Shown here in pieces: positions 1,536 through 59,604 of a DNA stretch of 64,000 bases. The notes below the pieces were generated by a model that did not search any database, had not been told where the DNA came from, and saw only the letters and a program-made list of their open reading frames with translations. The first letter of the stretch is position 1; every line of letters starts with the position of its first letter. The DNA is from Bryoerythrophyllum caledonicum (lineage: Eukaryota; Streptophyta; Bryopsida; Pottiales; Pottiaceae), in contig OZ020515.1 in the NCBI GenBank assembly GCA_963971425.1, positions 35,661,856 through 35,725,855 of the forward strand, given 5' to 3'. The position numbers were made by a program, and so were the translations under genes.

Positions 1536-1540
1536 ATATT

Positions 1541-6421: not shown

Positions 6422-6438
6422 TAAGACTTCGCCGGAAC

Positions 6439-27180: not shown

Positions 27181-27243
27181 CTACATACACACACACAAAG
27201 ACAACCACACACCATCAACGAAACACATACATATACATACACA

Positions 27244-34528: not shown

Positions 34529-34552
34529 GCCGGGATTAGTTTCTATGTCTCC
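34526..34552 (-). other. 2A-like ribosome-skipping motif, LINE copy B
   Basis: Encodes GDIETNPGP, matching the consensus D-x-E-x-N-P-G-P. In established 2A peptides the ribosome skips the Gly-Pro bond, separating the upstream product from the downstream one. Residues upstream (CRLSIILC) are hydrophobic, as in active 2As. The Pro codon is followed directly by ATG, so internal initiation is an alternative way to make ORF2. Confidence 0.85.
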
Positions 34553-34616
34553 GCAAAGTATAATTGATAGTCTGCAATGAGTAATGTTTATGGCTGCTAG
34601 TGGGAGGGGTGTGGAG

Positions 34617-35039
<423 letters not shown>

Positions 35040-35373
35040 ATTTTGTTCTTGTTGTCGTTTTTGGTTTGTTTAGTAGTGTGTAGAGGTATCATGTTTTGTG
35101 TCCTATGTGTATTATTATAACTTTTCTGTAACTTTATAATAGTTGTTTTAGTATATAAATATACTGAATTAAATCCTTGTTTGTTTTTAATTAAGTTGTT
35201 ATTTATATTTTGGTTGTATTTGTTGTGTTTAATAGTGTATAAATACACTAGAGTTATTATTATTTTTATTATTTTAATTTTATATGTATTTTGGAGATTG
35301 TTTATTATATTATATATTATAGTATATATATATACTGTTGTGTATTCTTTGTTTATAGCGTTGTTTGACAATG

Positions 35374-35398
35374 CTAGTTTGACAAGTCCATCTTGCCT
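35374..35398 (-). promoter_or_regulatory. ORF1/ORF2 overlap, -1 frame, LINE copy B
   Basis: On the element strand the ORF2 leader frame opens right after a TGA inside ORF1 (35401-35399) and crosses ORF1's stop TAG (35376-35374) in the -1 frame; the overlap is 25 nt. The sequence around the stop is ttgtcaaactagcattgtca, where TTGTCAAAC occurs again 14 nt later. The last sense codon is AAC preceded by A, as in the E/C overlap. No ATG starts the ORF2 leader near here. Confidence 0.5.
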
Positions 35399-36960: not shown

Positions 36961-39900
36961 GCTGTAGCAATAACAAAAAATGTCAATTCTAAAGGTACAT
37001 CGTATTATCTCGTTACCCCTTATCCTCTTGATCTCAGCTTCTCCCCCCAACATATGTTGAGGGCTTTTCGAAGGAGAGTTTATCAAGAAGGGGTGGAAAT
37101 TCGTTCTAATGGTGTACCAACAAGATACTAAAACAATTTCTAAAGGTTGGAAGTACAGCGCATTGACCTTTACACATACACACGCATGGGAGGCGCCAAA
37201 ATATTGGGCACCTCCCCAAGTAACTGGCTTGATTAATACATTTTGTTTACATGTCCTTTGGATTGCATAATAATCCCAAAGTTGGCAAAGATCAATAAAT
37301 TGTAATGGGGGTGTGAAAGAAGTAAAACCTGAGTGTGTAATTCCACCTTGCAGCCTAGGGGGTAGAGTCTTGATTTGATGGTCCCCCCGTGTGGTGGTGT
37401 ACCTCTCGCTTGCCTGTAGCTGAAGTCTCTGTCTGGTTGGTGTGAGCACCACTACGGTTCTTGTAGTACGCGAAAGACAAGGTTTGTTGGCGTAGCTTGG
37501 TGGTCCCCTTCCAGATGTCGCGCACTTCTCTTCTCCAGGTTGATGTAGCGTGGAAAGTACCTCTCTTATCGCGGCTCGCTTCTTCTTGCCGAGCTGATGG
37601 TCCTTGAATGATCCCCGAACGGATCTCTTCCAATCTTGGGCAGGCAGTTGGCGCTCTCTTCGCTCTTGTAGAACTTCTGGAGCCGTTACCGAGGTTAGGG
37701 TTTCTTGGGACGTCGGCGGAGTTGCCGCAACCCGTTTGCAGGACCAGCGCTTGGGCGTCTGTCGGCGGACCAGCTGCGGGGTTTGCCGAGGTTCCGGGAG
37801 GATGTGGTGGAGTCGCGGCCGTTGGGAGTGGTCGTCTTCGCTCGTATGCAGTCTTTGGACTTCACTTGCGCCGGCACAGCAGTCTCGCCTGACGTGTTGT
37901 TGGTCGGGCTTCGTCGGCCCTTCTTCGTAAGTGTGTGGTCTCCCTCTGCGCCTGTTGGCAATCTTCTTCCACCTACATCGGTCTTCTACAGCGGTTGTCT
38001 GTGGCGACTTGTTTGGATCTTGCGCAGACCTTCTTCGTGGTGCAGTCTCCTTGCTCTTTGTTCTGTTGATGTGCTCGGCATTCGGGTCTTGGGACAGGGC
38101 TTCTTGGTCCTTCTTGCGTCGGTGTGTGCCTTGGGGTCCACCTGCGGGGCAGTTTCTCGACTTCGACTTCGGCTGATGGATCCTCGAGTTGGTCTGCTGC
38201 GGGCTTCGGCGGTGAGTCTGGATAGCTTTACTCGTTCTGTACTTCACCTGTATGTGTACTGCGTGAGATGCGACATTTAACAGAAGTTCCTCTACTATTG
38301 TCTGCAGGTGCAGGTGCCGTTCTCTCTGTGAGGCACATGTTAGCGTCCTGTTAACGACTGTCAGTTTACAAACAATCCCCATAAAAGACAACAAGATTAC
38401 AAGGAAGGGAGTAAACCGTTCTTCACTGTCGTAGGTAGTCAAGGCGAGGAGTGTCCAGGCCGATCTTGGGGGTGACGTCTCTCTCCTCCGTTGGTCCTTC
38501 GTGGCTTCAAGCAGGTACTTGCCCTCAACTTGGGCTGAGCAGATGTCGCAGTGTCTCCACAGCGATGGGAGTGGGTGTCTACGTGGTATAGCAATGTAAG
38601 AGGGTTTGAGAGTAAAGTGATGGTGAGATATATACCTTGTGTTGAGCTCGTGTTTGATGGATGTAGTTGTGGTTGATGAACATCTTCGTTTTTGGGTTGT
38701 TGATCTTCTAGGGTTAGCTTCTTCTGGGAGCCGTTGAGTTGCGGCTGGTTGATTGTCTTGGCTTGGATGGAAGTTTGAGTCCTGCTCTTTCGAAAGTTCG
38801 TTGTTTTTGTATTGCCGGCTAGGGTTTCGTCTGTGTACTAGTGGTTGTCCAGACTTCCTTGTGAGTTGCATGTCCTTGGGCATCCTACTAGTATTTAGTG
38901 GTGTTTCCTTACCAGAGAAGACAGGAAACGAGGAAATGTTGAGGTTGCTTACCTGTACGTACCTGTTGTTTATTTGGTGTCTTGAGGTCTTGCTTGCTTG
39001 TAGTTGATGTGTTTGGTGGTGTTGTCGCTGCGGTGGTCTTGATGTGGGGCTGTCCAAGGTGTGGAGTCCATGGTCTTGCACTTCCTTCCTTGTTGATTTT
39101 GGTGGACTCTTGTATGTCGTTGATTTTTCTTTTAGCTCCTGCTCTCTAAATCGACGTTGTCTTCGGCAAATGATGTTGCAGTGTTCCCTGGTGAAAGTAA
39201 ATTGGAAGCATATGATGTATAAACTAGGGGTAGGAATACTTACCTTGGCCAGTGGTGGTGATGAGTCGTTGTGCTTGTCTCCTTTCGTTGAAGTTGATGT
39301 CATTCTGTTTACGACGTGGGTCTTGGGGGCGAAGTCGTCCGCCGCGGCCTCTGGAACCGCCGCAGCCTCGTGGCTTTTCTTGGGCACCTTCTGGAGCTGC
39401 GTCTTCATCGTTGCGAATTGCTCCACCCATGTGCTATTTCCGATTTCGGTACTCGGTCCTCTTGCACCACCCGTGTGTGATAACACGTTCCTCATGTGCG
39501 CGGCGACCTCGTGCATGAGCTTGTTTTTCGGGAGTCTGATGTGCTGCTCGATCTTGGTCATTGGAGGTGCTGTGTCATCGTGCTTGATTCTTTGAGTTGA
39601 GGCTGATGTCATGTTGTTTACGCCCTGGTCCTGTTGTTGTTGACTGCAGGTGTGTTGATCTTGATATGTTGGTGCGGCTGCTTTGGATCTTCGGTGTGGT
39701 GCTGCTGCTGCTTCAGTGTAGGAGTGTAGATTCTGTAGGTCTTCACAGATTAGACGTAGGCGCCTCTCCTTCGTAGTGCTGAACTGCTGCTGATTATGGG
39801 TGGGCTCTATGTGTGAATGGTCTGCAGTTGTGCCAAGTAGGCATCTGTTCTTCTCTATTTCTGCGGGGTTATGAAATACACTTGCTTCCACTACTTTCCT

Positions 39901-40528
39901 AGTTGTATGTGACCCTAACTTACATTTCCTAACATGAGGTTTTGCAAGATGCCTTTTGCAATTAGACTTAGATTCTATACTGTGAAACGATGTAGGCAGC
40001 GTATTGTAATGAAAAAACTTAGCTGATTTTGTTGAATGTTGTCCTTGATAGAGTGATCTTGTGTCTCGGTGGCTGTTTCGTGTCTTCTGTAGGCAGTGGT
40101 TCTTCTTCATAGTAGTGCTGATGCTCTGGTTGAGGAGAGGTAAGGTGTATGGCATGTCTATGGTGTCATGGTAACCTAAATCTGGATCTAATTGATTGAG
40201 AGATGATATGGGGCTGCAACCTCTAGATCTAGATCTGGGCCAACACAGAGCCCCGCCACAGATCTACTCTCCCAAACTAGCTCTAGATTGTTGCAACCTC
40301 CTACATACTTTGCATCAATAGATCTAAGATACGCAATCCCTCAACACTTTGCACACCATAAGCATACCGTTCAGCAACAAAGGACGTGTACACAGGGATT
40401 TACAATGAGCCCAGCAACCCTCATTGATGTGTGCATTGCAATTGCGCCTAACACCTAGAAACCTCTCCTCACCAGGTTTTGCGGAGCTACTCTTCTCTCA
40501 TCTCTGAGTTGACCATCACCGAAATTAT
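36961..40528 (-). other. LINE copy B 5' leader, open in ORF1 frame to 40155
   Basis: The ORF1 frame is free of stops from an ATG at 40155 down to ORF1, adding ~1,065 codons of Ser/Arg/Gln/Thr-rich, domain-free sequence. The 5' end carries a phrase shared with E/C (gctccgcaaaacctggtgag at about 40475, gctccgtaaaacctggtgag at about 21009) and more loosely with D (about 49746). The leader is much more GC-rich (37350-38300) than ORF2. No promoter motif could be fixed. Confidence 0.5.
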
Positions 40529-40612
40529 ACATATATATACATACACACATCCAAAGACAAACACATACAATCAAAAAAATACAAATACCAAAGCCACACT
40601 CAAAAACAAAAA

Positions 40613-40636
40613 ATGGAGACTAACCCAAGACCGATG
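40613..40636 (+). other. Decayed upstream 2A module, LINE E/C
   Basis: Encodes METNPRPM, followed by SNILKRHPASHKKNAKTYFI. This duplicates the true 2A junction at 41114 (IETNPGPM then PNILKRHPTSHKKNAKIYFI) about 500 bp upstream. Gly of NPGP is Arg here, which should abolish skipping. Copy D has a related decayed module. Confidence 0.75.
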
Positions 40637-41113
40637 TCGAACATATTAAAAAGACACCCCGCTTCACACAAAAAAAATGCCAAAACATATTTCATACCAA
40701 ATACTAATACAAACACCATAACAAACAATTGTACAAACCACAAAGTATATAATAACACCGCATATGAAAAAAAAGACTTAAAAGCCACTTTAAAAACCAA
40801 CATAAACCCACATATAAATAGTCTTAAACATAATAGTTACATATGCACACGGACAAAAACAACCAAGATAAAATACAAGAAATCATACATACATCCATAC
40901 ACTACTAAAACAAAAACAACCACAAAAAACACATGGACAAAAAATAAACTAAAGACGAAAACAACTACACCTACTATAAAAATAAATAAACCCACAACTC
41001 ACACACAAAATACAAACATCCACCTACCCCCAAACCAACAAGTCATTAATAACACAACAAAGCCTTTAAAATACACCACTAAACATATATACCACAAACT
41101 TCTACTACTTCTA

Positions 41114-41143
41114 GGAGGAGACATTGAAACCAACCCGGGACCC
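41114..41143 (+). other. 2A-like motif, LINE E/C
   Basis: Encodes GGDIETNPGP preceded by YHKLLLLL and followed by ATG. Same position relative to ORF2 as in copies B and D. Confidence 0.85.
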
Positions 41144-44100
41144 ATGCCCAATATACTAAAAAGACATCCTACATCACATAAGAAAAATGCCAAAATCTAC
41201 TTTATACCTCATACCATAAAACTCCAACCAGAATATGAACACATTGCAAAACCCTTCGCACCATTTCTAAAAAACACACACACATTACACCACATACACA
41301 ACACTTCCCACCCAAACATTGCCCAATTCATACAACAAAAAAATACGCATCCACCACCCCACATCTTATATGCACTAATAATCACTACTCATCCAAGCAT
41401 AGATGAATGTAACCAACTTCTAAATCCACAAAATTGGAACACAATTACATGGACTAATACACTCCTACAAACCTTACTAACATTACAAAACCCACCTGAA
41501 CGACACATTTACACTTCACACCCCTATACTGAATTCCTAGTAGACAACCAAAATATTAAAACCATGAGAACTCAATACATAAAAGACTATACGACTTCTT
41601 ACATAGTCAAGACATACCACCCTCAAATGATATAATAAAACTAAAATTCCCTTACCTCCCTAACAACCTCATAAGTGAATCACTAAAATGTCTAGACCCT
41701 ATACCAGAATACACCCACCCACCCCCACCTCTTCCCTACATCCCTCCTCAAAACCAAAATCAAAACATTAGACCAAACCAAGAAAATACATACATAATCA
41801 CATGGAATGCCTCCTCACTAAACACTGCCCTTCCTAGCTTACAAACTCTAGTCGCAAACACAGACACACCACCGGCTCTTATAGTTATACAAGAAACAAA
41901 ACTAACCGCCACAAAATCTACAAAATATATACAAAATATATTTCAAGACTATAAACTCATCTTTAACAATACACATGCACTTACAAGATGCATGCAACAA
42001 AGGAGACCATACACACCGGGCCGCGGTGGCCTCCTTACATTAATACACAAAAAATATACATTCCCCGGCAACATCAACAAAATCCCTACCCCAATGCACA
42101 TATCACCATACATTCAAACAATTAAAATCACTAATCACCCACTACAACCGTGGTTAATCTTTCACATGTATATGCCATCCCATCCCGAAGATACTAGATT
42201 TCTCTTAGAGATACAAAACACTATTACAAACCATATTAATAATCATCCCAATCATACATACCTATTATGTGGAGACTTCAATAGAGACATAGCGCTAATT
42301 GGCCGCCAAAATGGAAACCACCACAACCCCCCTCAAAACATTGATTACCAATGGCGCCGCTTCACAGAAAACTTAAACTTCACTTACATCAATACCGATA
42401 CACAATTCTCTAGACAAGGTGGCTACAATTATAGTGATTGGAGTCTAATAGATGGTTTCTATATAAATACAAATAACAACACACAATACACCGCCACAAC
42501 AAACAAAGATACTATTCTCAATTCGGACCACTCACCCGTACAACTGCACATCCCAAATAACACACTTATTAGTAGAACTACAATCCCAAACAAAGACACT
42601 ATACGCATACTCAACCCCATCCCAAAAACCAACATAGAAAAATTCAACACAAAATTCTTCGAAGAAAACACCGTACAAATAGACTCCCTCATAAACACTC
42701 TTGAAATCAATAGTCAATTAACACAAACACAATGGCAAGAAGCATGCCACTCTCTAGACAAACTCATCAATAAAATCTGTGATACACTAGAACAAACTTG
42801 TAGAGCACACCCAATACCCCAAATGACAAACAGAACCTCTCAACAAGGCGGATATCTACCCCGCAAACTTTCTAAAACTTGGAAACAATACTTAACCACA
42901 TACCATACCATACGTAAAACCATTAGAATTGTAAAAAACAACCCTCAATGGCGTAACCACCCCATACACAACGAACTACTAACTATACAACACATCCAAA
43001 TCCCTACCCCGCCGCCTCCGGACCTTCCCCACGATACATGGATAAAAGATATCGCGATAATTGCAAAAAATGCCAACATACAAGCCCGGAAAATAATCAC
43101 AAAATACACAAAAGAAAACATTAAAAAAGCCATCTCAAAATACAGACATCTATACGAAATCAGCCCCAAAAAAATTAACAAAAAAGTCTTTAAAAACCTT
43201 GAATCCCCACCAATGGATTGTATCAAAGATCAATATAATAATATTCTAACTAGCCCCGAAGACATTGCGAATGAAATATTCAACCAACAAACAAAAACCA
43301 ATAGACCAACAGTACCAACATGTAATTACCAGCCACAACATACAATAGAATGCACATGTGCAATACGCCAATACCCTTGGCACGACCTGGACGGATATAC
43401 CCTTGACAAACGGGGCGAACCAGAAATTCCACTTCATAAATACCTCAACAGAGCCACATACGACACATGCCTCCAAAATCTTGGAAATAATAAAGCCCCA
43501 GGCCCAGACCGCATACCAAACTCAATACTAAAAAACATGCCTCCAAGATTTCATAAGCTATTATTTCTGTTCTTCTCCCACTGCTATAAACAAAAACAGA
43601 TACCAAACTCATGGAAATTAAGTACAACAATTCTACTATACAAAAAAGGCGACCCGTCCATACTACCCAACCATAGACCAATTGCACTAGCTAACACAAT
43701 ATATAAACTCTTTACTAGTACACTCACCTCTATACTATCCTCATACGGCGAAAAATTCAAAATCCTACATAATAGTCAAGAAGGATTTAGAGCAGAGAGA
43801 AGTACCGCACGACAAATACAAACTATAATTGCCGCACTAGAAGACGCAAAGTTTACTAACCAAGATATATACATACTATACGTGGACTTCAAAAATGCCT
43901 TTGGCTCAATTGACCATGCCCGACTTCTAGCAATAATGATGGACCTTGGTTACCCAAAAGATGCAACTACACTTGTTGGAAACATCTACTCTAAATCATC
44001 TACATATTATACCGGTGAACACTTTGGGAAAACAAAACCTATACCCATTCAAAGAGGAACTATACAAGGGGATACCCTCAGCCCATACCTATTCATTATA

Positions 44101-47100
44101 TTTCTAGAACCACTACTCAGATGGCTAGAAAGAGGAAATTACGGATACACTTTTGGCACATCACAGGTCATAATAAACTCTGCCGCATACGCGGATGACC
44201 TAGCCACCATAACTAACAAAATCAAATCAATCCAAATACAACTCCATAAAATTGATAGATATTGTAAATGGGCCGGTATGGACGTAGGTGTTCCAAAATG
44301 TGCCGCTACCGGTTGCCCAAACAAATCCAAATTGAATCCTACCACTTTCAAAGCCCTAATGCAAGCCTCGAACATCAATTACCGCAATCAACCGATCCCC
44401 ATACTACACCAAAATGAACCATACATATACTTAGGCACAAACCTTGTTCCCTCACTAAAATGGAAAATCCAAATCCACACCACAACGACAAAACTCATCA
44501 AACAATGCAAAGAACTAACAACATGCCCAGCCACCATGAAACAAAAAATAAAAATGGTTGATACCGTACTACGCCCAGGTGTGGCATACAGTTTCTACGG
44601 TGTACCATACTCTATGCCAGCTATCAAAAAACTTGATAAAAAAATAATAGCCATACAAAAAACCATATGTGGATTACCAAAATGTATGTCAAACGCAATA
44701 ACCCAACTACCACATAACCTATTTGGACTTGAAGCTTTCTCCCTCAAAAACGCATACCTCCGATGTATAGGCGAACAACTGCAAAATGCTCTAAACGATA
44801 AAGGAAGACTTGGAAAAATTTATAATGGATTAACTCATTACATCCTCGCCCAATACGGAGGCGCCGAAAACATACCCAGAATTTAAAAAAGCGACTGTAT
44901 AAGATCACCAATAACACGGACATTCTTCTTATTAAAGCATATAGCCAAAGTCCACCTTAAAAGCACACTCCCAAACTTCCTCATTAATCCTACAACACTT
45001 GAAACACTATGGCAACAAGAAACACTAAACCACAACACACTCAATGCCCAACTCTCCCAAAAGCTTCTACAAAAACTCCTCTCAAAAAATATTTTTGAAC
45101 TAAACCAAATTACCTTACCTAACGGTACACACATCATGAACAATGAGGACTTCAAAACCTACCACTTCACCCCATCTAAACTAATAAAGAGTGCCCTAAG
45201 TGTTGCTAAACAACTATTTTGCCACATAACATGCCCCACTATATGTCAAACTCCTTGCAACATACACCCATACTCTCATACACTTAAAGATCCATTCATC
45301 ACCCTCAACAATAACATCATCCCAAGAAATATTCCCACACCAACCAATCCCCCTAACCCTCCACATACATACCACCCCCGCCCCCCAACATACATCCCCA
45401 AAAACCCTACCACATACCCCATTAATAATATCATAAACCATAAACATATCCAACACACAGACACAAATAACATACAAAATAACTACACAAAATATCTATG
45501 CCAATGGCAACACAATGATAATACATACAATAAATGGCTCCCCCAAAGAGACCTTTTTCCACGGCATGACACCAATACCTCCACACATAACACTGAAAAA
45601 TTAAAACAATACTACCAAAAGATCCAAAACAAAATATACTCAGATATCATCCTTGCCCACTATCCACAAGAACAATCCTCAGATTCAAGGTCCGTAACGC
45701 CACCCATAATTATCCCACTCTTAAACATCTACACAATAGAATGCAACCCCGAAAATGATATCCTTACATCCTCAAACACAATTCAAATAGATAACAATCA
45801 AGCACATCTATACGAAGAAAATGGCCGACATTTACACACCATACCCATTACCCGGCTCCAATGGTTATGGAACCAATATCATACAAAATTACAAACCCCT
45901 ACAAACATTGAACCAACAACCCAACCCTTTGAAACCGAACTAATATGGCTTTACCAAAGATATAAATATCGAATACCAAAAACTGACCCCCTCAAAAATG
46001 CGCAATACACAATACCCACCCCCATTTTAGACTCACTAATATCATCCTTTAACATCGAACACTCATACTTTTCCTCCCCGATCACATGTCCTACCAAACT
46101 AAATAAATTCTACTCACCGTACGAAAGAGACAAAATATTTGGATCCCTAGGCAAGGCCTTTGAACACAAATGGATCGGAAATGGAATAGCTCACCCCCAC
46201 AACGAGAAAGACATAGAACAAGCCATACATTGGGCTAGACTTGCCGCCAAACACGATCCAAATAACACAAAAACAATCATCGTCACACCGAACAACAATT
46301 GGTACCAAAACAACAGCCAACATTCAAACCCATTCCCAGATTCCCACATCATTGCATTATTCGAAGCAGACACAATACCATACGAAGAACCTAATATCCC
46401 ACCCGAGCTAAAAAAACCCCGAATAGAGCCATCTACATTACAAATACTATGCGTCCATCATCAAAATCAAAACCTGGGCTCCCTAGAACAACTTGTGGAA
46501 CTTACCTCCATAACAGACAATCTAGCCATACAACGACCATACACAAAACCGGCCCCACCAACACCCATACAAACCCCCGTAAACAAAAGTAAAAAATGGT
46601 CAAAATTAAACTATGACAACAACACATTAAACTACTCTGTCATACCTCCCCCTCTCCCAGACTACCCAACTCATACCACACCAAAATTTAACCCCGCATA
46701 CAGTTATTACACCGACGGCTCCTTTAAACCACCGGAACAAATTAGCCCGGGCTCTTGGCGAAGAGAAAGAGCTGGCTATGGCATATATAATTCTACCAAA
46801 GAAATTAAACTAGCCAAAAGACTCCATGGACTACAAAATATCCTCAGAGCAGAACTCATGGCCATTCACAAAACACTACAAATCATCACAACAAAATACA
46901 AAAATGAACCTGCACATATATTCACCGATTGTATAAATGCGCTCTACCTACTAAACACTCAAATAACACACCCAACCCTTCACAACAATCACCCCGACCA
47001 AACCATACTAACATCAATGGTACAAATGTTACAAGAACGTACACAGATCACAACCCTTCACAAAGTCAGAGCCCATGCCAACATTAATGGCAACGAACAA

Positions 47101-48168
47101 GCAGACAAACTTGCAAAAGAAGGCCGAGAAAAAACACACAAAAACGCCAAAGACCCTCACGAACATGCTCATGCCACCCCATACTACTTTCAAAAAGAAG
47201 ATTGGCCTTCCAAAGAAGATACCCCCGACAAAGGCCCAATTAGATTTCTGGGCAAATATCTCAAAAAACAAGACCTCTACAACAACCTGGATACAATCTC
47301 AGAAAATATTCCTAACATAGAAAAATGGACTAACAATAACGACATAGACAATGAACTCTCTACAAACTTTTGGAAAAACCCCATCATCTCAGACTCACAA
47401 ATAACGTGCCTCATCAAATTCCGTACGGGTCAGTACATGGGAAACGCTCGCAAACAACTCTTCTTTGGAACAGAAAGATTCCCATCCATAACATGCCCCA
47501 TATGCCCCTCAACGGACCCCGACACATGGCTTCATGTGCTACTCAAATGCCAAAACCACCACATACACTCCCTAATTGTTAAAAGACATAACAAAGCGGT
47601 ATGGGAAGTCCGAAAACTAATCACCTCCTATAATAAATCGAGATGTTTCATACTTATGAACGCCGGCACTTTTAATAGCAATCCACAAGAAAACACGGTC
47701 CCCCCATGGCTACTTCCATGCTCATGTATGACCCAAAGATGTCATTGCAATGCTAGGCTCAAACCGGACATCCTTTGTGTCAAAGGTTTACCATACAACG
47801 ACCCACCACCCGAGAACATCAACCAAGACTACACCATTCAATTCATCGAATTTACATATTGCAACGATAGATTCTCCCCGGAAACAATACAAAACAAAAT
47901 AGATAAATACCAACCCCTCATAAACGACATCATTGCCCTCGGCTGGAATGTGGACCCCCTTATTGTTATCACATCCGGCGCTCGTGCCACCACCTTTATC
48001 CCATCTATGAAAACTCTCGAAGATACCTTCAAGATACCCATTGATACAATTAAAACTACCTTTAAAAATATCAACACCATCGCTATTCAACATGCCATGT
48101 CTATTTTACTGCATAAACGCAAAATCGAAAACAACCAAGTCCTCCCTGATAGGCAAGACCCCCCGTAG
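41141..48168 (+). pseudogene. LINE E/C ORF2, decayed
   Basis: Homologous throughout to the intact ORF2 of copy D. A 1-nt deletion near 41550 (aatattaaaacc versus aatattataaacc in D) shifts the frame before the EEP domain; the coding frame from 41992 carries CGDFNRD, NSDHSPV and AAYADDLATI. TAA at 44884-44886 replaces AAA (Lys of D). Downstream the same frame stays open to 48168 with YTDGSFK, RAELMAI, FTDCIN, HANINGNEQADK, CPIC...H...C, KRHN, LKPDILC and FIEFTYCNDR. Two lesions make it inactive, but catalytic residues are all retained, so decay is fairly recent. Confidence 0.88.
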
Positions 48169-48461
48169 GAACTTCGCCACTCTGTCTCTTTATGATTGGC
48201 TGCCTGTTTGGTTTTGGTTTTGGTTTTTTTTTTTTTTTTTTTTTTTTTGTGTTGTTTAGTTAGTTTGGTCGTGGTTGGTCGTTGTTGGTTGGTTTTCTGG
48301 CTACTCGTTACATAGTGTCTACCCTCGAAAGGGGGAAGTAGTTCCAGTTCGCTGATTCCTTGTCCGGTGGGCATGGTCTTAGCAATGGAACGAACAGACA
48401 CTTTATTCACGCCGGTTCCCTTCGGGAACCGGCGTTCTTCTTCTTCTTCTTCTTCTTCTTC
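48169..48461 (+). other. LINE E/C 3'UTR, terminal hairpin and (TTC)n tail
   Basis: Includes a run of ~25 T near 48225. A block conserved in all copies follows (acatagtgtctaccctcgaa ... ccggtgggcatggtctta). Then comes a perfect 10-bp stem CGCCGGTTCC/GGAACCGGCG with loop CTTCG (48410-48434) and about nine TTC units. Confidence 0.85.
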
Positions 48462-49696: not shown

Positions 49697-50091
49697 TGTA
49701 TAAGCAAGTCAAGTTTTGAGGAGAGATGTCTGAGAGTAGCTGAGAGCTCCGTATTTTCTGGTTAGGTGCAACAAAGAAGTTAGTCTCTGGGAAGAGGTGT
49801 GAGTGCAACGAAGGTGGCTGGATCTGTTGCATACCCCGCTCATAGCTAAGATCAGAGGCAATAGTGGGCTTTGAGAGTGGCGTTGTGTTGGGCAGGGGTA
49901 GTAAAGGTCAGATCTAACCCTGGCATTCGAAATTTGAGCGATCTGAAGGTAGATTGGAGTGAGGGATGACCTGAAAGCACTGGGACCCTGTGTTGGCACT
50001 CGATCTAACTTCTTAGAACTCAAACACGATATACAGGTGTAGATCTAACTTGTGTTGGTTGTGACGCCCTAAGCCCACTTAGACTTCTTGA

Positions 50092-51519
50092 TTGTTGCCC
50101 CGACCCAGAAACCACCACACATACGATCTGAAGTCCACACACAGATTCGGGATAGTAGCGGCTCACACTGAAGGAGCCAACCAGCAGCGAGAACGAGATC
50201 TCAAGTCCACACAAGTGCAAGAGAGTGCAACCAAGTTACAGAACAGACGAGAGGAAACCGACGATCAAGGAAGTTCACATGACCTGAAGTGCATCCAAGT
50301 TCTGCAGCAAACATCAGCCACAAAGAAGCACACCAACAGCACGAAACCAAGCAGACAGCACTCCATCCCTGGAGTGCCCAGGTTCGATCTGACCTTACTT
50401 CATTTCAATTTATTTTTTGTTTGTTTATTAGTGTTTGATTTGTTTGCACATTACAGTATACGAGTGATACAAAGAGATCTACAGAGCACTCACACACTAG
50501 TAGCTACCTCCGACATCTTACATATCACCACACTCACATACACTAGATGTAGATCACCACAAGCTCACTGTAACAACACGCACATAAAGCTCCACACTAG
50601 ATCTCTGATAGAAAACCCTATTAAGCTCGTATGTGTAGATCGCACGCGGAAGCGCTGGAAATTTTTCCCAGATCTAGATCTACCTGCACATCAGCAACAA
50701 AGACACACAACATCAACACTGAAGAAAACGACACGTCGACAGCAGTGCACAAGAACACGACGCAACGGCCAACAAATCCGTAACTCTATCCACATCACAA
50801 CAAGACCTCACAGCAAGATCGCAACATACAATAACACCTCAACAGGGAGCAACCTACAGCAACTTCACACCAAGATTCGATCAAACGTAACGGAGGACCA
50901 AGATCCAGCCCGCGGCAACATAACAGGGAGCACACTCTACCCCTCCTCTCACAGTTCTTCCCCTTCTTGCATTCCTCACTCACCGCTCTCACCTTGCTTA
51001 AACCCTCCACCTCTCCTCCATGTTCCCTCCTTCATTCTCACCACAGATTCCAAGCTCCCCCACCCAAGCCCCCGGCGCATTACTACAGACAGTCACCTGA
51101 ATCGAATCCAAAGACCACGACCCAACCCTCCACAAACCCTCGCACTCACACAACTTCTCCCTGCGAACCTCTCCCTGCAAACCTCTCCCCATAGCGACCC
51201 CTGGAACTCCCCTTGCGACCTACAAAACCTTGGTAGCGACCTTGTGAATCTTCATAGCGACCCCTGGAAATCCCCCTGCGACCTATCAATTGGTAGCAAC
51301 AACCCCTGGAAATCCCCCTGCGACCTACCAATTGGTAATAGCGACCTCCCTAATCCCCCCTGCGACCTACCTAATTCCCCTAGCGACCTACCTAATTCCC
51401 CTTGCGACCTACCTAATCCCCCTTGCGACCTACCTAATCGCCCTTGCGACCTACCTAACCCCACTACCAGTACATATACTGGTACGTATTCTGGTGCGTA
51501 TTCTGGTACGTATTCTGGT
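50092..51519 (+). other. Stop-free, ATG-free leader in frame with copy D ORF2
   Basis: 476 codons upstream of the first in-frame ATG (51520) contain neither a stop nor an ATG in the ORF2 frame. Ser/Thr/Pro/Arg-rich with no recognised domain. It could be a translated leader initiated at a non-AUG codon or joined by splicing, or a 5'UTR that is open by chance. Confidence 0.55.
51225..51466 (+). repeat. Tandem repeats, 21-bp unit (CDLPN-x-P) in copy D leader
   Basis: Units like gcgacctacctaattcccct repeat about six times at 51345-51466, preceded by longer units containing gcgacccctggaaatccccc. They encode CDLPNSP/CDLPNPP heptads in the ORF2 frame. Not seen in copies B or E/C. Confidence 0.85.
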
Positions 51520-51800
51520 ATGTATAATCATACGAATACCGATATGAATACTGATACATATATTGATACGTATATTGGAGTACATATTGGTACGTATATT
51601 GGTACGTATATTGGTACATATACTGATTCATATACTGATATGAATACTGATATGAATACCAATACAAATACTTGTACGAATACTAACACGAATACTTACA
51701 CAAATATTGATACGAATACCAAGACGAATACTTACACGAATACTCATACAAATACCAAGACGAATATTAAGGCACATACTAATACGAACATACGAATGAA
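51470..51800 (+). repeat. Hexamer/dodecamer repeats in copy D leader
   Basis: tacgtattctggtac and aatacgaatact-type units encode TYSGTYSG and NTNTNT. The tract aligns with E/C 26880-27180 and contains the first in-frame ATG (51520). Confidence 0.8.
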
Positions 51801-54800
51801 TACAAATATAAAACCAAATACAACTACATATACACACACAAAGACAACCACACACCATCAAAGAAACACATACATATACACACACACACACAAAGACGAA
51901 TACATACAATCAAAAAAGCACCAAAAAAAATACCAAAGCCACATACAAAAACACAAAATTCCAAAACAAAACAATAAACCCACCTACTACAAACTACTAA
52001 TATTAATTGGAGGGGACATAAACACAAGGCCAAACACAACCAAAAAAAAATATAAACAAACACACACACACCTATACACCATTAATAAAACAAAAACAAG
52101 TACGCAAACAAACACATGGACACAAAAAAAATTAAAGATAAATACAATTACATTCAAAAAAAATATTGAATTTATAAACATCCACCTCTCTCCAAACAAA
52201 CAAGACCTCCATAACATAACAAAGCCCCAAAGAATTACAAAAAAAGAAAAAACATTAAAAAACAACACTAAACACACATATCACAAACTCCTACTACTTC
52301 TAGGAGGGGACATAGAAACTAACCCAGGACCCATGCCTAATATACTAAAAAGACACCCTACTTCACATAAGAAAAATGCAAAAATTTACTTCATACCTAA
52401 TACCATAAAACTACAACCGGAATATAGACACATTGCAAAATCTTTTGCACCTTTCTTAAAAAACACACATACATTACACCACACACATAACAACACATAT
52501 CCAAACATTGCCCGATACGTTCAACAAAAAAATGCGCATCCACCACCTCACATACTATATGCTCTAGTAGTCACTACCCATCCACACATAGATGAATGTA
52601 ACCATCTCTTAAACCCACAAAACCTGAACACAATTACATGGGTCAATACACTTCTACAAAACTTACTAAACTTACAAAATCCACCGGAACGACACATCTA
52701 CACTTCACACCCGTATACAAAGTTCCTTGAAGACAACCAAAATATTATAAACCATGAGAACTCAATACATAAGGAACTATATGACTTTTTACACAGCGAA
52801 ACAATATCTCCCTCAAATGAAACAATAAAAATAAAATTCCCCTACCTACCTAACAATCTCATCAATGAATCACTAAAATGTTTGGACCCTATACCAGAAT
52901 ACACCCACCCACCCCCACCACTTCCCTACATCTCTCCGCAAAACCAAAATATTATATCAAATCAAGAAAATACATACATAATCACATGGAATGCCTCCTC
53001 TCTAAACACTGCCCTTCCTAGCCTACAAACTTTGGTCACGCACACAAATACACCACCAGCCCTCATAGTTATACAAGAAACAAAATTATCTGCCACAAAA
53101 TCCACAAAATATATACAAAATATATTTCAAGACTATAAACTCATCTATAACAATATACATGCACTTACAAGATGCATTCAACAACGAAGACCATACACAC
53201 CAGGCCGAGGAGGTCTCCTTACACTAATACACAAAAAATATGCCTTCCCGGGCAACATCAACAAAATCCCTACCCCAATGCACATATCACCTTACATTCA
53301 AATAATCAAAATTACTAATCACCCTCTACAACCATGGTTAATCTTTCACATGTATATGCCATCTCATCCCGAAGACACTAGATTTATCATAGACATACAA
53401 AACACTATTACTTCCCAAATTCATAATAACCCTAATCACACATACCTATTGTGTGGGGACTTCAACAGAGACATAGCATTAATTGGTCGCCAAAATGGAA
53501 ATCATAACACCCCCCCTCAAACCATTGATTACCAATGGCGCCGCTTCACAGAAAACTTAAACTTCGTCTACATCGATACCGATACACAATTCTCTAGACA
53601 AGGTGGCTATAATTACAGCGACTGGAGTCTAATAGATGGATTCTACATAAATACAAACAACAATACACAATACACCTCTACAACAAACAAGGATGTTATT
53701 CTCAACTCGGACCACTCACCTATACAATTACACATTCCAAATAACACATTAATTAATAGAACTCCTACAATCCTAAAAAATGATACTATACGCATACTCA
53801 ACCCCATTCCAAAAGACAATATAGAAAAATTCAACACCAAATTCTTTGAAAAAAACTCCATACAAATAGACTCCCTCATAAACACTCTCGAAAATAACAA
53901 TCAATTATCACAAATACAATGGCAAGAAGCATGCCACACCCTAGACAAACTTATCAATGCAATCTCTGACACACTAGAACAAACTTGTAAAGCCCAACCA
54001 ATACCTCAAATGACAAACAGAACTTCTCAACAAGGAGGTTACTTACCCCGTAAACTTTCTAAAACTTGGAAACAACACCTAACCACATACCATACTATAC
54101 GGAAAACCATTAGAATTGTAAAAAATAACCCTCAATGGCGTAATCACCCCATATGCAACGAACTACTAACTATACAATACACCCAAATCCCTACCCCGCC
54201 ACCTTCGGACCTACCTCACGATACATGGATAAAAAATATAGCACTAATTGCAAAAAATGCCAACATACAAGCCCGCAAAATTACCTCAAAATATACCAAA
54301 GATAACATTAAAAAAGCCATTTCAAAATATAGACAACTATACGAAATTAGCCCCAAAAAAATTAACAGGAAAGTTTTTAAAAACCTTGAATATCCACCAA
54401 TGGATTGTATCACAGACCAATACAACAATATTCTAACTAGCCCAGAAGACATTGCAAATGAAATATTCAACCAACAAACCAAAAGTAATAGACCAACAGT
54501 ACCAACATGTAATTATCAACCACAACATCCATCTGAATGTACATGTGCAGTACGCCAGTACCCATGGCACGACCTCGATGGATTTACCCTTGACAAACGA
54601 GGCGAACCAGAAATCTCACTACATAAATACTTTAATATAGCCACATATGACACATGTCTTCACAATCTTGGTAACAACAAAGCCCCAGGCCCAGACCGCA
54701 TCCCAAACTCAATACTAAAAAACATGCCCCCAAGATTCCATAAACTATTATTACTATTCTTTTCTCATTGTTACAAACAAAAACAAATACCTATGTCATG

Positions 54801-57800
54801 GAAATCAAGTACAACAATTCTACTATACAAAAAAGGCGATCCATCTATACTACCCAACCATAGGCCAATTGCACTAGCTAACACAATATACAAACTCTTC
54901 ACTAGTACACTCACCTCTATACTATCCTCATACGGTGAAAAATTCAAAATCTTACATGATAGTCAAGAAGGATTTAGAGCAGAAAGAAGTACCGCTAGAC
55001 AAATACAAACTATAATAGCCGCACTAGAAGACGCAAGATTTACAAACCAAGATATATACATACTATACGTCGACTTCAAAAACGCCTTTGGCTCAATGGA
55101 CCATGCCCGACTATTAGCAATAATGATGGACCTTGGTTACCCAAAAGATGCAACTACACTTATTGGTAACATCTATTCTCAATCATCTACTTGTTATACT
55201 GGTGAACATTTTGGGAAAACAAAACCTATACCCATTCAAAGAGGAACTATACAAGGGGATACCCTTAGCCCATACCTATTCATTATATTCTTAGAACCAC
55301 TACTCAGATGGCTAGAACGAGGCAACAATGGATACACTTTTGGCACATCACAAGTCACAATAAATTCTGCCGCATACGCAGATGACCTCGCCGCCATAAC
55401 TAACAAAATCAAATCTATCCAAATACAACTCAACAAAATTGATAGATATTGTAAATGGACCGGAATGGACGTAGGTGTCCCAAAATGTGCCGCTACCGGA
55501 TGCCCAAACAAATCCAAAATAAACCCTACCACTTTTAAAGCCCTTATGCAAGCTTCCAGCATCAATTACCGCAATCAACCAATCCCCATATTACACCAAA
55601 ATGAACCATACATATACTTAGGTACAAATCTTGTTCCATCACTAAAATGGAAAATCCAAATCCACACCACAACGACGAAACTCATCAAACAATGCAATGA
55701 ACTAACAACATGCCCGGCCACCATGAAACAAAAAATAAAAATGATTGATACCGTACTACGTCCAGGTGTGGCATACAGTTTCTACGGTGTACCATACTCT
55801 ATGCCTGCTATCAAAAAACTTGATAAAAAAATAATAGCCATACAAAAAACCATATGTGGACTACCAAAATGCATGTCAAATGCAATAACCCAACTCCCGC
55901 ATAACCTATTCGGGCTTGAAGCTTTCTCCCTCAAAAACGCATACCTCCGTTGTATAGGTGAACAACTACAAAATGCCTTAAATGATAAAGGTAGACTTGG
56001 AAAAATATATAATGGACTAACTCATTATGTCCTTGCCCAATACGGTGGCGCAGAAAACATACCTAGAATTAAAACAAGTGACTGCATAAGATCACCGATA
56101 ACACGAACATTCTTCTTATTAAAACATATAGCTAAAGCCCACCTTAAAAGTACGCTCCCAAACTTCCTCATTAATCCTACAACACTAGAAATACTATGGC
56201 GCCAAGAAACACTAAATCATAACACACTCAATGCCCAACTCTCCCAAAAGCTTCTACAAAAACTCATCTCAAAAAATATTTTTGAACTAAACCAAATTAC
56301 TATACCAAACGGCACACACATCATGAACAATGAGGATTTCAAAACCTACCACTTCACCCCATCCAAACTAATAAAAAGTGCCCTAAATGTTGCTAAACAA
56401 CTATTTTGCCACCCAACATGCCCCACTACATGTCATACTCCTTGCAACATACACCCATACTCTCATATACTTAAAGATCCATTCACCACCCTCAACAATA
56501 ACATCATCCCAAGAAATATTCCCACACCAACCAACCCCCCTAACCCTCCACATACATACCACCCCCGCCCCCCAACATACATCCCCAAAAACCCTACCAC
56601 ATATCCCATTAATAATATCATAAACCATAAACATATCCAACACACAGACACAAATAACATAAAAAATACATACACAAAATATTTATGTCAATGGCAACAC
56701 AATGATAACACATACAATAAATGGCTTCCCCAAAGAGACCTATTTCCACGACATGACACCAACACCTCCACACATAACACAGAAAAATTAAAACAATACT
56801 ACCAAAAAATTCAAAACAAAACATACTCGGATATCATCCTAGCACACCACCCCCAAGAACAATTCTCAGACTCAAGATCCGTAACACCACCCATAATTAT
56901 CCCTCTCTTAAACATCCACACAACAGAATGCAACCCCGAAAATGATATCCTTACATCCTCAAACACAATCCAAATAAATAACAATCAAGCACATCTATAC
57001 GAAGAAAATGGCCGACATTTACATACCATCCCCATTACTAGACTCCAATGGCTATGGAATCAATACAATATAAATTTACAAACTCCTACAAACATCGAAC
57101 CAACGACCCAATCCTTTGAAACCGAAATAATCTGGCTATACCAAAGGTATAAATACCGAATACCAAAAACTGACCCCCTAAAAAATGCACAATACACAAT
57201 ACCCACTCCCATCTTAGACTCATTAATCACATCCTTTAACATCGAACAAGCATACTTTTCTTCCCCGGTCACATGTTCTACCAAACTAAAAAAATTCTAC
57301 TCATCTTATGAAAGGGATAAAATATTCGGATCCCTAGGAAAGGCCTTTGACTATAAATGGATTGGTAAAGGTATAGCTCACCCCCACAACGAGAAAGATA
57401 TGGAACAAGCAATACATTGGGCTCGACTTGCCGCCAAACACGATCCAAATAACACAAATACGATCATCATCACACCGAACAACAATTGGTACCAAAACAA
57501 TAACCAACATTTAAATCCATTTTTAGATTCCCATATCATTGCAGTATTTGAGGCAGACACAATACCATACGAAGAACCTACTATCCCACCCGAACTAAAA
57601 AAACCCCGAATCGAGCCATCAACATTACAAATACTATGCGTCCATCATCAAAATCAAACCCTAGGTTCCCTAGAACAACTTGCTGAACTTACCACCATAA
57701 CAAACAATTTAAACATACACCGAATATACACAAAATTGGCCCCACCAACACCCATACAAACCCCAGTAAACAAAAGTAAAAACTGGTCCAAACTAAACTA

Positions 57801-59355
57801 TGTCAACAACACATTAAACTACTCCGTCACACCTCCCCCTCTCCCTGACTACCCAACTCATACTACACCAAAATTTAACCCCGCACACAGTTACTACACT
57901 GACGGCTCCTTTAAACCACCAGAACAAATTAGCCCGGGTTCTTGGCGCAGAGAAAAAGCTGGCTATGGCATATTTAATTCTATCAAAGAAATTAAACTAG
58001 CCAAAAGACTCCATGGCCTACAAAACGTCCTCAGAGCAGAACTCATGGCCATTCACAAAACACTACAAATCATCACAACAAAATACAAAAATGAACCTGC
58101 ACATATATTCACCGATTGTATAAATGTACTCTACCTACTAAACACTCAAATAACACACCCTACCCTTCACAATAGCCACCCCGACCAAACCATATTATCA
58201 TCAATGGTCCAAATGTTACAAAACCGTACACAAATCACAACTCTTCACAAAGTGAAAGCCCATGCCAACATTGACGGCAACGAACAAGCAGACAAACTTG
58301 CAAAAGAAGGCCGAGAAAAAACACACAAAAATGCCAAAGATCCACACGAACATGCCCATGCCACCCCATACTACTTTCAAAAAGAAGATTGGCCTTCCAA
58401 AGAAGATACCCCCGACAAAGGCCCAATTAGATTTTTGGGCAAATATCTCAAAAAACAAGACCTCTACAACAACCTTGACACAATCTCAGAAAATATTCCT
58501 TACATAGAAAAATGGACTAATAATAACGACATAGACAATGAACTCTCTACAAACTTTTGGAAAAACCCCATCATCTCAGACTCACAAATAACATGCCTCA
58601 TCAAATTCCGTACTGGTCAATATATGGGAAACGCTCGCAAACAACTCTTCTTTGGAATAGAAAGGTTCCCATCCATAACATGCCCCATATGCCCCTCAAC
58701 GGACCCCGACACATGGCTTCATGTTCTACTCAAATGCCAAAACCACCACATACACTCTCTAATTGTTAAAAGGCATAATAAAGCGGTAGGGGAAGTCCGG
58801 AAATTAATCACCTCCTACAATAAAGCGAGATGTTTTATACTAATGAACGCCGGCACTTTTAATAACAATCCACAAGAAAATACAGTCCCCCCTTGGCTAC
58901 TCCCATGCTCATGTGTGATCCAAAGATGTCATTGCAACGCTAGGCTCAAACCGGACATCCTATGTGTTAGAGGTTTAGCATACAATGATCCGCCACCCGA
59001 CCACATTAATCAAGACTACACCATTCAATTCATTGAATTCACATATTGCAACGATAGATTTTCTCCGGAAACAATCCAAAACAAAATAGACAAATATCAA
59101 CCCCTCATTGACGACATCATTGCCTTTGGATGGAAGGTAGACCCCCTTATTGTTATCACATCTGGCGCTCGTGCCACCACCTTTATCCCATCTATGAAAA
59201 CTCTAGAAGATACCTTCAAAATACCCATTGAAACAATCAAAACCACCTTTAAAAAAATTAACACCATCGCTATTCAATATGCCATGTCCATTTTGCTACA
59301 TAAACGTAAAATTGAAAACAACCAAGCCCTCCCCGATACTCAAGATCCCCCTTAA
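51520..59355 (+). CDS. LINE copy D ORF2 polyprotein: leader-2A-EEP-RT-RNase H-REL
   Basis: 2,611 codons from the first ATG. 2A skipping at residue 270/271 would release a 2,341-aa enzyme. EEP endonuclease: E520 in IQETKL, D647 in CGDFNRD, D731-H732 in NSDHSP. RT: NKAPGPDRIP, QEGFRAERS, YVDFKNAFGS, QGDTLSPYLF, and YADD with D1288-D1289. RNase H: D2128 (YTDGSF), E2174, D2199 (FTDC), H2248 and D2258 (KAHANIDGNEQAD). C-terminal module: CPIC-x9-H-x4-C (2388-2406), R2418-H-N, K2477-P-D, E2506 (QFIEFTYCNDR) and a following KY. CCHC, RHN, KPD and a downstream acidic residue are the signature of restriction-like endonucleases of R2-type elements. Having EEP, RNase H and REL in one protein recalls the Dualen/RandI clade. 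No lesion found. Confidence 0.9.
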   Translation: MYNHTNTDMNTDTYIDTYIGVHIGTYIGTYIGTYTDSYTDMNTDMNTNTNTCTNTNTNTYTNIDTNTKTNTYTNTHTNTKTNIKAHTNTNIRMNTNIKPNTTTYTHTKTTTHHQRNTYIYTHTHKDEYIQSKKHQKKYQSHIQKHKIPKQNNKPTYYKLLILIGGDINTRPNTTKKKYKQTHTHLYTINKTKTSTQTNTWTQKKLKINTITFKKNIEFINIHLSPNKQDLHNITKPQRITKKEKTLKNNTKHTYHKLLLLLGGDIETNPGPMPNILKRHPTSHKKNAKIYFIPNTIKLQPEYRHIAKSFAPFLKNTHTLHHTHNNTYPNIARYVQQKNAHPPPHILYALVVTTHPHIDECNHLLNPQNLNTITWVNTLLQNLLNLQNPPERHIYTSHPYTKFLEDNQNIINHENSIHKELYDFLHSETISPSNETIKIKFPYLPNNLINESLKCLDPIPEYTHPPPPLPYISPQNQNIISNQENTYIITWNASSLNTALPSLQTLVTHTNTPPALIVIQETKLSATKSTKYIQNIFQDYKLIYNNIHALTRCIQQRRPYTPGRGGLLTLIHKKYAFPGNINKIPTPMHISPYIQIIKITNHPLQPWLIFHMYMPSHPEDTRFIIDIQNTITSQIHNNPNHTYLLCGDFNRDIALIGRQNGNHNTPPQTIDYQWRRFTENLNFVYIDTDTQFSRQGGYNYSDWSLIDGFYINTNNNTQYTSTTNKDVILNSDHSPIQLHIPNNTLINRTPTILKNDTIRILNPIPKDNIEKFNTKFFEKNSIQIDSLINTLENNNQLSQIQWQEACHTLDKLINAISDTLEQTCKAQPIPQMTNRTSQQGGYLPRKLSKTWKQHLTTYHTIRKTIRIVKNNPQWRNHPICNELLTIQYTQIPTPPPSDLPHDTWIKNIALIAKNANIQARKITSKYTKDNIKKAISKYRQLYEISPKKINRKVFKNLEYPPMDCITDQYNNILTSPEDIANEIFNQQTKSNRPTVPTCNYQPQHPSECTCAVRQYPWHDLDGFTLDKRGEPEISLHKYFNIATYDTCLHNLGNNKAPGPDRIPNSILKNMPPRFHKLLLLFFSHCYKQKQIPMSWKSSTTILLYKKGDPSILPNHRPIALANTIYKLFTSTLTSILSSYGEKFKILHDSQEGFRAERSTARQIQTIIAALEDARFTNQDIYILYVDFKNAFGSMDHARLLAIMMDLGYPKDATTLIGNIYSQSSTCYTGEHFGKTKPIPIQRGTIQGDTLSPYLFIIFLEPLLRWLERGNNGYTFGTSQVTINSAAYADDLAAITNKIKSIQIQLNKIDRYCKWTGMDVGVPKCAATGCPNKSKINPTTFKALMQASSINYRNQPIPILHQNEPYIYLGTNLVPSLKWKIQIHTTTTKLIKQCNELTTCPATMKQKIKMIDTVLRPGVAYSFYGVPYSMPAIKKLDKKIIAIQKTICGLPKCMSNAITQLPHNLFGLEAFSLKNAYLRCIGEQLQNALNDKGRLGKIYNGLTHYVLAQYGGAENIPRIKTSDCIRSPITRTFFLLKHIAKAHLKSTLPNFLINPTTLEILWRQETLNHNTLNAQLSQKLLQKLISKNIFELNQITIPNGTHIMNNEDFKTYHFTPSKLIKSALNVAKQLFCHPTCPTTCHTPCNIHPYSHILKDPFTTLNNNIIPRNIPTPTNPPNPPHTYHPRPPTYIPKNPTTYPINNIINHKHIQHTDTNNIKNTYTKYLCQWQHNDNTYNKWLPQRDLFPRHDTNTSTHNTEKLKQYYQKIQNKTYSDIILAHHPQEQFSDSRSVTPPIIIPLLNIHTTECNPENDILTSSNTIQINNNQAHLYEENGRHLHTIPITRLQWLWNQYNINLQTPTNIEPTTQSFETEIIWLYQRYKYRIPKTDPLKNAQYTIPTPILDSLITSFNIEQAYFSSPVTCSTKLKKFYSSYERDKIFGSLGKAFDYKWIGKGIAHPHNEKDMEQAIHWARLAAKHDPNNTNTIIITPNNNWYQNNNQHLNPFLDSHIIAVFEADTIPYEEPTIPPELKKPRIEPSTLQILCVHHQNQTLGSLEQLAELTTITNNLNIHRIYTKLAPPTPIQTPVNKSKNWSKLNYVNNTLNYSVTPPPLPDYPTHTTPKFNPAHSYYTDGSFKPPEQISPGSWRREKAGYGIFNSIKEIKLAKRLHGLQNVLRAELMAIHKTLQIITTKYKNEPAHIFTDCINVLYLLNTQITHPTLHNSHPDQTILSSMVQMLQNRTQITTLHKVKAHANIDGNEQADKLAKEGREKTHKNAKDPHEHAHATPYYFQKEDWPSKEDTPDKGPIRFLGKYLKKQDLYNNLDTISENIPYIEKWTNNNDIDNELSTNFWKNPIISDSQITCLIKFRTGQYMGNARKQLFFGIERFPSITCPICPSTDPDTWLHVLLKCQNHHIHSLIVKRHNKAVGEVRKLITSYNKARCFILMNAGTFNNNPQENTVPPWLLPCSCVIQRCHCNARLKPDILCVRGLAYNDPPPDHINQDYTIQFIEFTYCNDRFSPETIQNKIDKYQPLIDDIIAFGWKVDPLIVITSGARATTFIPSMKTLEDTFKIPIETIKTTFKKINTIAIQYAMSILLHKRKIENNQALPDTQDPP
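52009..52035 (+). other. Decayed upstream 2A module, LINE copy D
   Basis: Encodes GGDINTRPN after YYKLLILI, clearly a worn copy of YHKLLLLLGGDIETNPGP about 290 bp downstream. NPGP is lost; Arg occupies the Gly position, as in the decayed module of E/C (NPRP). Confidence 0.75.
52303..52332 (+). other. 2A-like motif, LINE copy D
   Basis: Encodes GGDIETNPGP preceded by THTYHKLLLLL, a near-ideal 2A context; the next codon is ATG. The predicted break is between Gly (52327-52329) and Pro (52330-52332). Confidence 0.88.
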
Positions 59356-59604
59356 ATGCTTCTCCGCCGAGACTTATCTTGACTGGTTGGTTTTGTGGTT
59401 TTGGCGACTTGCTTTGTTAGTTGTTACATTGGTTGTTTGTGTGCTTGGTTGGTATCAGGTCACCTGTTACATAGTGTCTACCCTCGAGAGGGGGAAGTAG
59501 TTCCAGTTTACTAATTCCTTGTCCGGTGGGCATGGTCTTAGTAGTGGAACGAACAGACACTTTATTCACGCCGGCTCCTTCGGAGACCGACGTTCTTCTT
59601 CTTC
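59356..59604 (+). other. LINE copy D 3'UTR with terminal hairpin and short (TTC)n tail
   Basis: Shares with copy C the block from acatagtgtctaccctcga to acagacactttattcacg. The hairpin at 59569-59592 (loop ttcg) has three mismatched pairs in a 10-bp stem, versus none in copy C. The tail has three to four TTC units before the TSD. Confidence 0.85.

What the first reader, a model, noticed from the sequence alone, without database searches (positions are those of the whole stretch)
49709..59604. A plant LINE that uses a 2A-like motif to free its enzyme from a variable leader
GDIETNPGP lies at the same place, just before ORF2, in all three LINEs here (52303, 41114, 34526-34552), with a hydrophobic run before it and ATG right after it. 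2A motifs are established in LINEs of trypanosomes and several animals; I know of no described plant LINE with one. Conservation in two diverged subfamilies (B versus C/D), while the adjacent leader changes completely, argues for selection on the motif.
Basis: partly seen in the sequence, partly recalled or inferred. Interest (0 to 1): 0.9.

Follow-up and report, generated by a model that had tools for sequence, protein, structure and literature searches.

The report
2A "StopGo" peptide in moss LINEs
A family of jumping genes in a genome that looks like a moss appears to use a short peptide, known mainly from animal viruses, that makes the ribosome skip one bond and so release the copying enzyme from a fast-changing front piece; the signal looks real and under selection but has not been tested in the laboratory.

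Summary
The motif is real. GDIETNPGP precedes ORF2 in the three LINEs; the host genome has 1628 pattern hits, the reversed control 0. In 40 copies chosen by ORF2 similarity, synonymous:non-synonymous differences are 72:24 in the motif, 32:126 in the adjacent leader, 49:25 in the next ORF2 residues. Of 23 environmental relatives covering the junction, 22 keep NPGP. The leader changes but tends to stay open in frame with ORF2: 7 of 23 distinct elements have no stop in 270 codons. Extra motif copies upstream are decayed in B, C and P0140. Best explanation: a 2A/StopGo peptide freeing ORF2 from a leader; skipping itself is untested. Corrections: B and C are close (89%), D is diverged; B lacks ORF1; VVEENPGP before D's ORF1 is private. 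The host is a land plant, probably a moss. ORF2 has APE, RT, RNase H, a possible restriction-like endonuclease (Dualen/RandI-like) and a PCIF1-family domain without NPPF. A 2025 survey of eukaryotic 2A sequences could not be read, so priority is undecided.

The parts
49710..59604 (+). LINE B: element without detectable ORF1, with a 3087-aa stop-free frame, 12-bp target-site duplication and (CTT)n-type tail
51520..52329 (+). B leader peptide (270 aa) from the first AUG of the ORF2 frame that opens into ORF2, to the predicted release site after Gly
   Evidence: release site inferred
51985..52038 (+). Decayed duplicate of the motif region in the B leader (YYKLLILIGGDINTRPNT)
52306..52332 (+). GDIETNPGP 2A-like motif of B; hydrophobic run LLLLLG just upstream
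52330..59352 (+). B ORF2 product predicted to start at Pro of NPG/P (2341 aa)
   Evidence: start inferred
52972..53739 (+). APE-like endonuclease region of B ORF2 (limits by my reading)
54673..55407 (+). Reverse transcriptase core of B ORF2 (limits by my reading)
57079..57495 (+). PCIF1_WW-family (methyltransferase-like) domain of B ORF2; AHPH where PCIF1 has NPPF (by my reading)
57886..58320 (+). RNase H region of B ORF2 (Pfam match made on the C copy; limits by my reading)
58681..59184 (+). CCHC-type finger and possible restriction-like endonuclease of B ORF2 (weak R2 match of the profile)
21292..27252 (+). Element A (approximate limits): ORF1 in two broken pieces and a leader; 5' half of the A/C element
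40514..48447 (+). LINE C (approximate start): 3' half of the A/C element, split from A by insertion of D; frame broken in places
40613..40660 (+). Decayed duplicate of the motif and ORF2 start in the C leader (METNPRPMSNILKRHP)
41117..41143 (+). GDIETNPGP motif of C
27256..40513 (-). LINE D (approximate limits), with ORF1, poly-Gln leader, motif and ORF2, inserted in A/C
34526..34552 (-). GDIETNPGP motif of D
35377..36990 (-). Stretch searched as ORF1 of D; contains a private VVEENPGP near 36897

Best explanation
The motif is a functional 2A (StopGo) peptide. Ribosomes translate a poorly conserved leader in frame with ORF2; at NPG/P the leader peptide is released without a stop codon and translation goes on to make a separate ORF2 enzyme beginning with Pro. 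Shown by sequence: the motif, its purifying selection, the tendency of the leader to stay open in the ORF2 frame, the L-rich 2A-type context, and decay of some motif copies that are not next to ORF2. Inferred: that the leader is translated in vivo and that skipping occurs.
For: 40 genome copies chosen by ORF2 similarity (40 of the 150 listed): syn:nonsyn 72:24 in the motif against 32:126 in the leader (Fisher p 4e-18); 10 of the 24 changes are at the residue that 2A leaves free. 22 of 23 environmental relatives have NPGP next to ORF2; mean entropy 0.34 bits in the motif, 2.29 in the leader, 1.05 in ORF2 after it. Leader stop-free over 270 codons in 7 of 23 distinct elements, reached by none of 200 shuffles of each of the seven; totals 133 stops in the ORF2 frame against 405 and 328. 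No Met follows the motif in 5 of 23 relatives. Some upstream runs end in SG or CG before Asp, as in the published L-rich class, of which one motif was assayed active. Decayed duplicates in B, C and P0140. The B type is recent: L018 is 100% identical over 9762 bp at another site with another flanking duplication.
Against: No biochemical test. Of the 40 genome copies 10 lack NPGP and 13 fail the core pattern; these may be dead copies. Glu is Gln in 3 and His in 2 of 23 relatives; His there is published as active, on Gln I found nothing. P0136 reads NLGP. Motif and following ORF2 residues do not differ significantly in syn:nonsyn (p 0.23). In 5 of 23 elements the ORF2 frame of the leader is not clearly poorer in stops than shuffles (more than 10 of 200 as low). 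In L019 part of the 270 codons is ORF1 lying in the same frame. B and C have GG, not (A/S/C)G, before Asp. P0131 and P0132 keep two intact motifs, so upstream copies do not always decay. How ribosomes reach the leader AUG is unexplained (six earlier AUGs in B; ORF1 upstream in D).
Confidence: 0.85

Rival explanations
1. The conserved block is simply the N-terminus of ORF2, kept for protein structure, and the leader stays fused or is removed by a protease.
For: Motif and adjacent ORF2 residues show similar constraint (p 0.23).
Against: The freest position in the block is the one free in 2A, the run before it is L-rich as in a published class, and the motif is the most conserved nine-column block of the 80 examined.
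Confidence: 0.1
2. ORF2 is started independently at the ATG directly after the motif, by internal initiation or reinitiation, and the motif has no recoding role.
For: ATG follows the motif in the three window elements and Met in 18 of 23 relatives.
Against: 5 of 23 relatives lack that Met; the upstream frame tends to be kept open; this would not explain constraint on NPGP upstream of the start.
Confidence: 0.04
3. Shared ancestry of recent copies only; no selection on the motif.
For: Many copies are very young, and the copies counted share ancestry, so its p-values overstate independence.
Against: Excess of synonymous differences in the motif but not in the leader, and conservation in relatives; 14 of the 23 were aligned and are 36-63% identical to B there.
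Confidence: 0.01

Closest known systems
2A/StopGo peptides of RNA viruses (core (D/G/C/N)(V/I)ExNPGP, L-rich upstream classes; PMC12846837, passages read)
   Same: Core octapeptide DIETNPGP, Gly before Asp, L-rich run, variable fifth residue
   Different: In LINEs of a probable moss; that paper found no evidence for natural use by plant viruses; five of 23 relatives have His or Gln at the Glu place
2A in non-LTR retrotransposons: trypanosome L1Tc (Heras et al. 2006) and APE-type elements of multicellular organisms (Odon et al. 2013); titles seen in reference lists, contents recalled, texts not read
   Same: 2A in frame with the enzymatic part of a LINE
   Different: Here LINEs with a long, fast-changing leader before a multi-domain ORF2 in a land-plant genome; what hosts those papers cover was not checked
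Dualen/RandI group (APE + RLE, RNase H; PMC4640811, passages read)
   Same: APE-like, RT, RNase H and a possible RLE with CCHC finger in one ORF2; distant hits in green algae
   Different: A PCIF1-family domain between RT and RNase H, and a 2A motif; RT phylogeny against Dualen references not tested

Membership tests
2A/StopGo peptide | Core D(V/I)ExNPGP | tested here: met
   Three window elements; 27 of 40 genome copies chosen by ORF2; 22 of 23 relatives keep NPGP and 18 of 23 Glu
2A/StopGo peptide | Suitable upstream context (here the L-rich class ending in (A/S/C)G before Asp) | tested here: inconclusive
   L-rich in B, C, D; L010 has LLLLSG exactly and D ends in CG, but B and C end in GG; class description from passages
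2A/StopGo peptide | Lies inside one open frame with coding sequence on both sides | tested here: met
   B and D; not in each genome copy
2A/StopGo peptide | Peptide-bond skipping in translation | not testable with these tools
   needs a translation assay
Dualen/RandI LINE group | APE endonuclease | tested here: met
   profile A2 matches ExoIII and L1 endonuclease; relatives carry PF03372/PF14529
Dualen/RandI LINE group | Restriction-like endonuclease | tested here: inconclusive
   collinear but weak match (stretch E 0.04-2.7) to the R2 C-terminus; structure prediction failed, then was off
Dualen/RandI LINE group | RNase H | tested here: met
   11 of 17 members of A1
Dualen/RandI LINE group | RT phylogeny within the Dualen group | not tested
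   no reference sequences at hand

The most novel reading that the evidence does not exclude
StopGo is an old, standing part of a two-endonuclease LINE lineage of green plants (moss, relatives in environmental DNA, one Haematococcus protein), where it lets a rapidly changing, sometimes membrane-directed leader evolve freely while a methyltransferase-like, multi-domain ORF2 is released intact; the young moss subfamily has even dropped ORF1 and kept the 2A.
Probability: 0.4. Interest if true: 0.75.

Novelty: new variant of a known kind. Interest (0 to 1): 0.62.

Why it matters
It would show natural use of 2A recoding by an abundant land-plant retrotransposon, where use by plant viruses has not been found (PMC12846837, passages), and would supply many natural 2A sequences from a plant. 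It makes directly testable why these LINEs keep an open but nearly unconstrained leader, and how a subfamily without ORF1 amplified recently.

Tried and rejected
A second 2A upstream of ORF1 in D (VVEENPGP) was rejected: 0 of 120 listed ORF1 relatives have NPGP (129 found, and only 18 of the 120 cover 97% or more of the query), and six genome copies read differently at that place. Fusion of ORF1 to ORF2 through the 2A as the general plan was rejected: leaders of relatives give no ORF1 match better than E 0.9; one exception is L019, where the ORF1 match (798-2120) lies in the ORF2 frame inside a 681-codon open stretch, but its ORF2 is broken after 378 codons. Papers sought and not held: Odon 2013, Rao 2025. 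The blastp half used a query cut out of frame and gave nothing (redone); the query A_orf1a was also out of frame and is not used.

Full report
Observation. The motif GDIETNPGP stands directly before ORF2 in the three LINEs of the window, at 52306-52332 (+), 41117-41143 (+) and 34552-34526 (-); a degenerate pattern finds these three, with a mean of 0 in 100 shuffles. Each has a hydrophobic run before it and ATG after it. The whole genome (437 Mb, 894 contigs) holds 830 + 798 pattern hits and 0 for the reversed pattern.

Elements. B lies at 49710-59604 between copies of TGTATAAGCAAG, with a (CTT)n-type tail and one 3087-aa stop-free frame. B and C are 89% alike over 7.6 kb, B and D 71%. A (ORF1 and leader) and C are collinear with B and look like one element split by D. 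A and D have ORF1; B has no match at E 1e-4. A genomic relative (L012/L022, one place) is 97-98% alike in its 3' part and has ORF1 matches, so B looks like an ORF1-deleted form (inference). B is recent: L018 on another contig is 100% identical over 9762 bp with another flanking duplication (my reading). In one search, 150 of 4079 candidates were scored; 43 rows show 100% identity over the first 200 residues, 41 at the top score, and 33 of these 41 (the window copy included) have an open frame of exactly 3087 aa.

Host. Sucrose-phosphatase exons (PF05116, PF08472) lie at 9553-11580. Contig C894 (115,000 bp) carries rps7- and ndhB-like frames (names by my reading), contig C893 (106,392 bp) cox1-, cob- and nad1-like frames (names by my reading). 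Three moss genome notes give mitochondria of 104.6-104.9 kb (abstracts seen: PMC11503002, PMC11992514, PMC11803377), which fits; their plastids are 123.5-125 kb, larger than the 115 kb here, perhaps one repeat copy collapsed (inference). The host is a land plant, probably a moss; the species is not identified.

Selection on the motif. Forty of the 150 places were fetched: 87-93% identical to B over the query, picked to leave out the near-identical B copies and some neighbouring duplicates. The query began with the last Pro of the motif and was otherwise ORF2. The core motif is intact in 27 of 40, NPGP in 30 of 40. Differences from the majority codon, synonymous:non-synonymous: leader (11 codons) 32:126, hydrophobic run (6) 34:26, motif (9) 72:24, next 14 codons 49:25. 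Motif against leader p 4e-18, against the hydrophobic run 0.02, against ORF2 0.23. Copies share ancestry, so these p-values overstate independence. Of the 12 hits on C1 that fall in the stretch listed, 10 have the motif at the expected place.

Relatives. Two protein searches returned mostly unnamed environmental sequences: 156 hits with 120 listed and 31 hits, together P0001-P0142. Of these 142, 23 cover the junction by the script; it counts 21 with NPGP, and P0140, scored there at a decayed first copy, has an intact one next to ORF2, giving 22; P0136 reads NLGP. In an ungapped 80-column frame set on the motif/ORF2 boundary the motif is the most conserved nine-column block; the fixed register counts indels against the leader, and the query contained the motif, so neither is free of bias. 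Of seven Haematococcus-labelled proteins among the 120 listed, one (P0063) has ACGDVEANPGP before its APE domain; I did not establish how many of the other six cover that region.

Leader. One search gave 28 rows; 5 repeat an element already counted (L015, L018, L022, L025, L027) and were dropped, leaving 23: the three of the window and 20 genome elements picked by the intact motif pattern, from contig C1. In the 270 codons before the motif they hold 133 stops in the ORF2 frame against 405 and 328 in the other frames (summed by hand). Seven (B, D, L016, L019, L020, L021, L028) have none in the ORF2 frame, which none of 200 shuffles of each reached; in L019 part of this stretch is ORF1 in the same frame, and in D much of it is poly-Gln. 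In 18 of 23 at most 10 of 200 shuffles are as low; in 5 (L014, L017, L023, L031, L033) more are. Leaders differ between types (poly-Gln in D, Thr/Asn-rich repeats in B). Leaders of several environmental relatives start with hydrophobic Met segments and hold repeated SAYRPRH-like words (my reading). Motif duplicates further upstream are decayed in B (GDINTRPNT), C (METNPRPM) and P0140 (GDMEPNPSP), whereas P0131 and P0132 keep two intact ones.

Mechanism. The passages read in PMC12846837 give the core motif, an LLLLSG-like upstream class with L-rich motifs ending in (A/S/C)G before Asp (one of them, motif 6, assayed active), about 90% or higher activity of rare variants including His at the Glu place and Val at the Asp place, and no evidence for natural use by plant viruses. 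In PMC4981915 (passages) a 2A-like sequence of an echinoderm protein works in Nicotiana. So plant ribosomes can do it. I take the motif as functional 2A at 0.85; translation of the leader and skipping are inferred. In B the leader AUG at 51520 comes after six AUGs whose frames are at most 50 codons.

Domains. ORF2 has an APE-like region, RT and RNase H, a CCHC finger and a possible restriction-like endonuclease (weak R2 match), and a PCIF1_WW-family domain, found in 14 of 17 aligned proteins. In a search with the C copy alone PCIF1 is third, at E 0.3, behind two designed TPR proteins. The catalytic NPPF of PCIF1 (recalled) reads AHPH, HPPF, HPAA or HPGP here, by my reading, so the domain may be inactive or changed.

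Literature. The listings of searches showed no title or abstract describing a 2A in a plant LINE; the library is partial, only the top rows of each listing were seen, and Rao et al. 2025 and Odon et al. 2013 are not held. Novelty is therefore rated as a variant of a known kind.

Noticed in passing
57079-57495 (+) in B; 45892-46296 (+) in C: A PCIF1_WW-family (cap-adenosine methyltransferase-like) domain between RT and RNase H of the LINE ORF2, without NPPF by my reading; present in 14 of 17 aligned proteins.
   Followed up: partly
49710-59604 (+): A subfamily without detectable ORF1 that amplified very recently: 33 of 41 top-scoring copies share an open frame of exactly 3087 aa.
   Followed up: partly
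34617-35070 (-): Long poly-Gln tract in the leader of D, in frame with ORF2.
   Followed up: no
25389-26556 (+): Tandem repeats in the leader region of element A.
   Followed up: no
35374-35398 (-): ORF1 of D ends MDLSN* just where the ORF2 frame opens; the relative P0158 also ends MDLSN, perhaps a coupling or frameshift site.
   Followed up: partly
L019:444-2486 (+): ORF1 match lies in the same frame as the motif and ORF2 start in one genome copy.
   Followed up: no
1281-7083 (-): Old broken copy of the same LINE ORF2.
   Followed up: no
93-410 (-): DDE_3 match below its curated cutoff, Tc1/mariner-like by my reading.
   Followed up: no
9553-11580 (+) and 62806-63924 (+): Host sucrose-phosphatase exons, and an E1-E2 ATPase match below its curated cutoff, phospholipid-ATPase-like by my reading.
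   Followed up: no
L036 and 27209-27256: Both the second B copy and D sit in leader-type repeat sequence, hinting at preferred insertion there (my reading).
   Followed up: no
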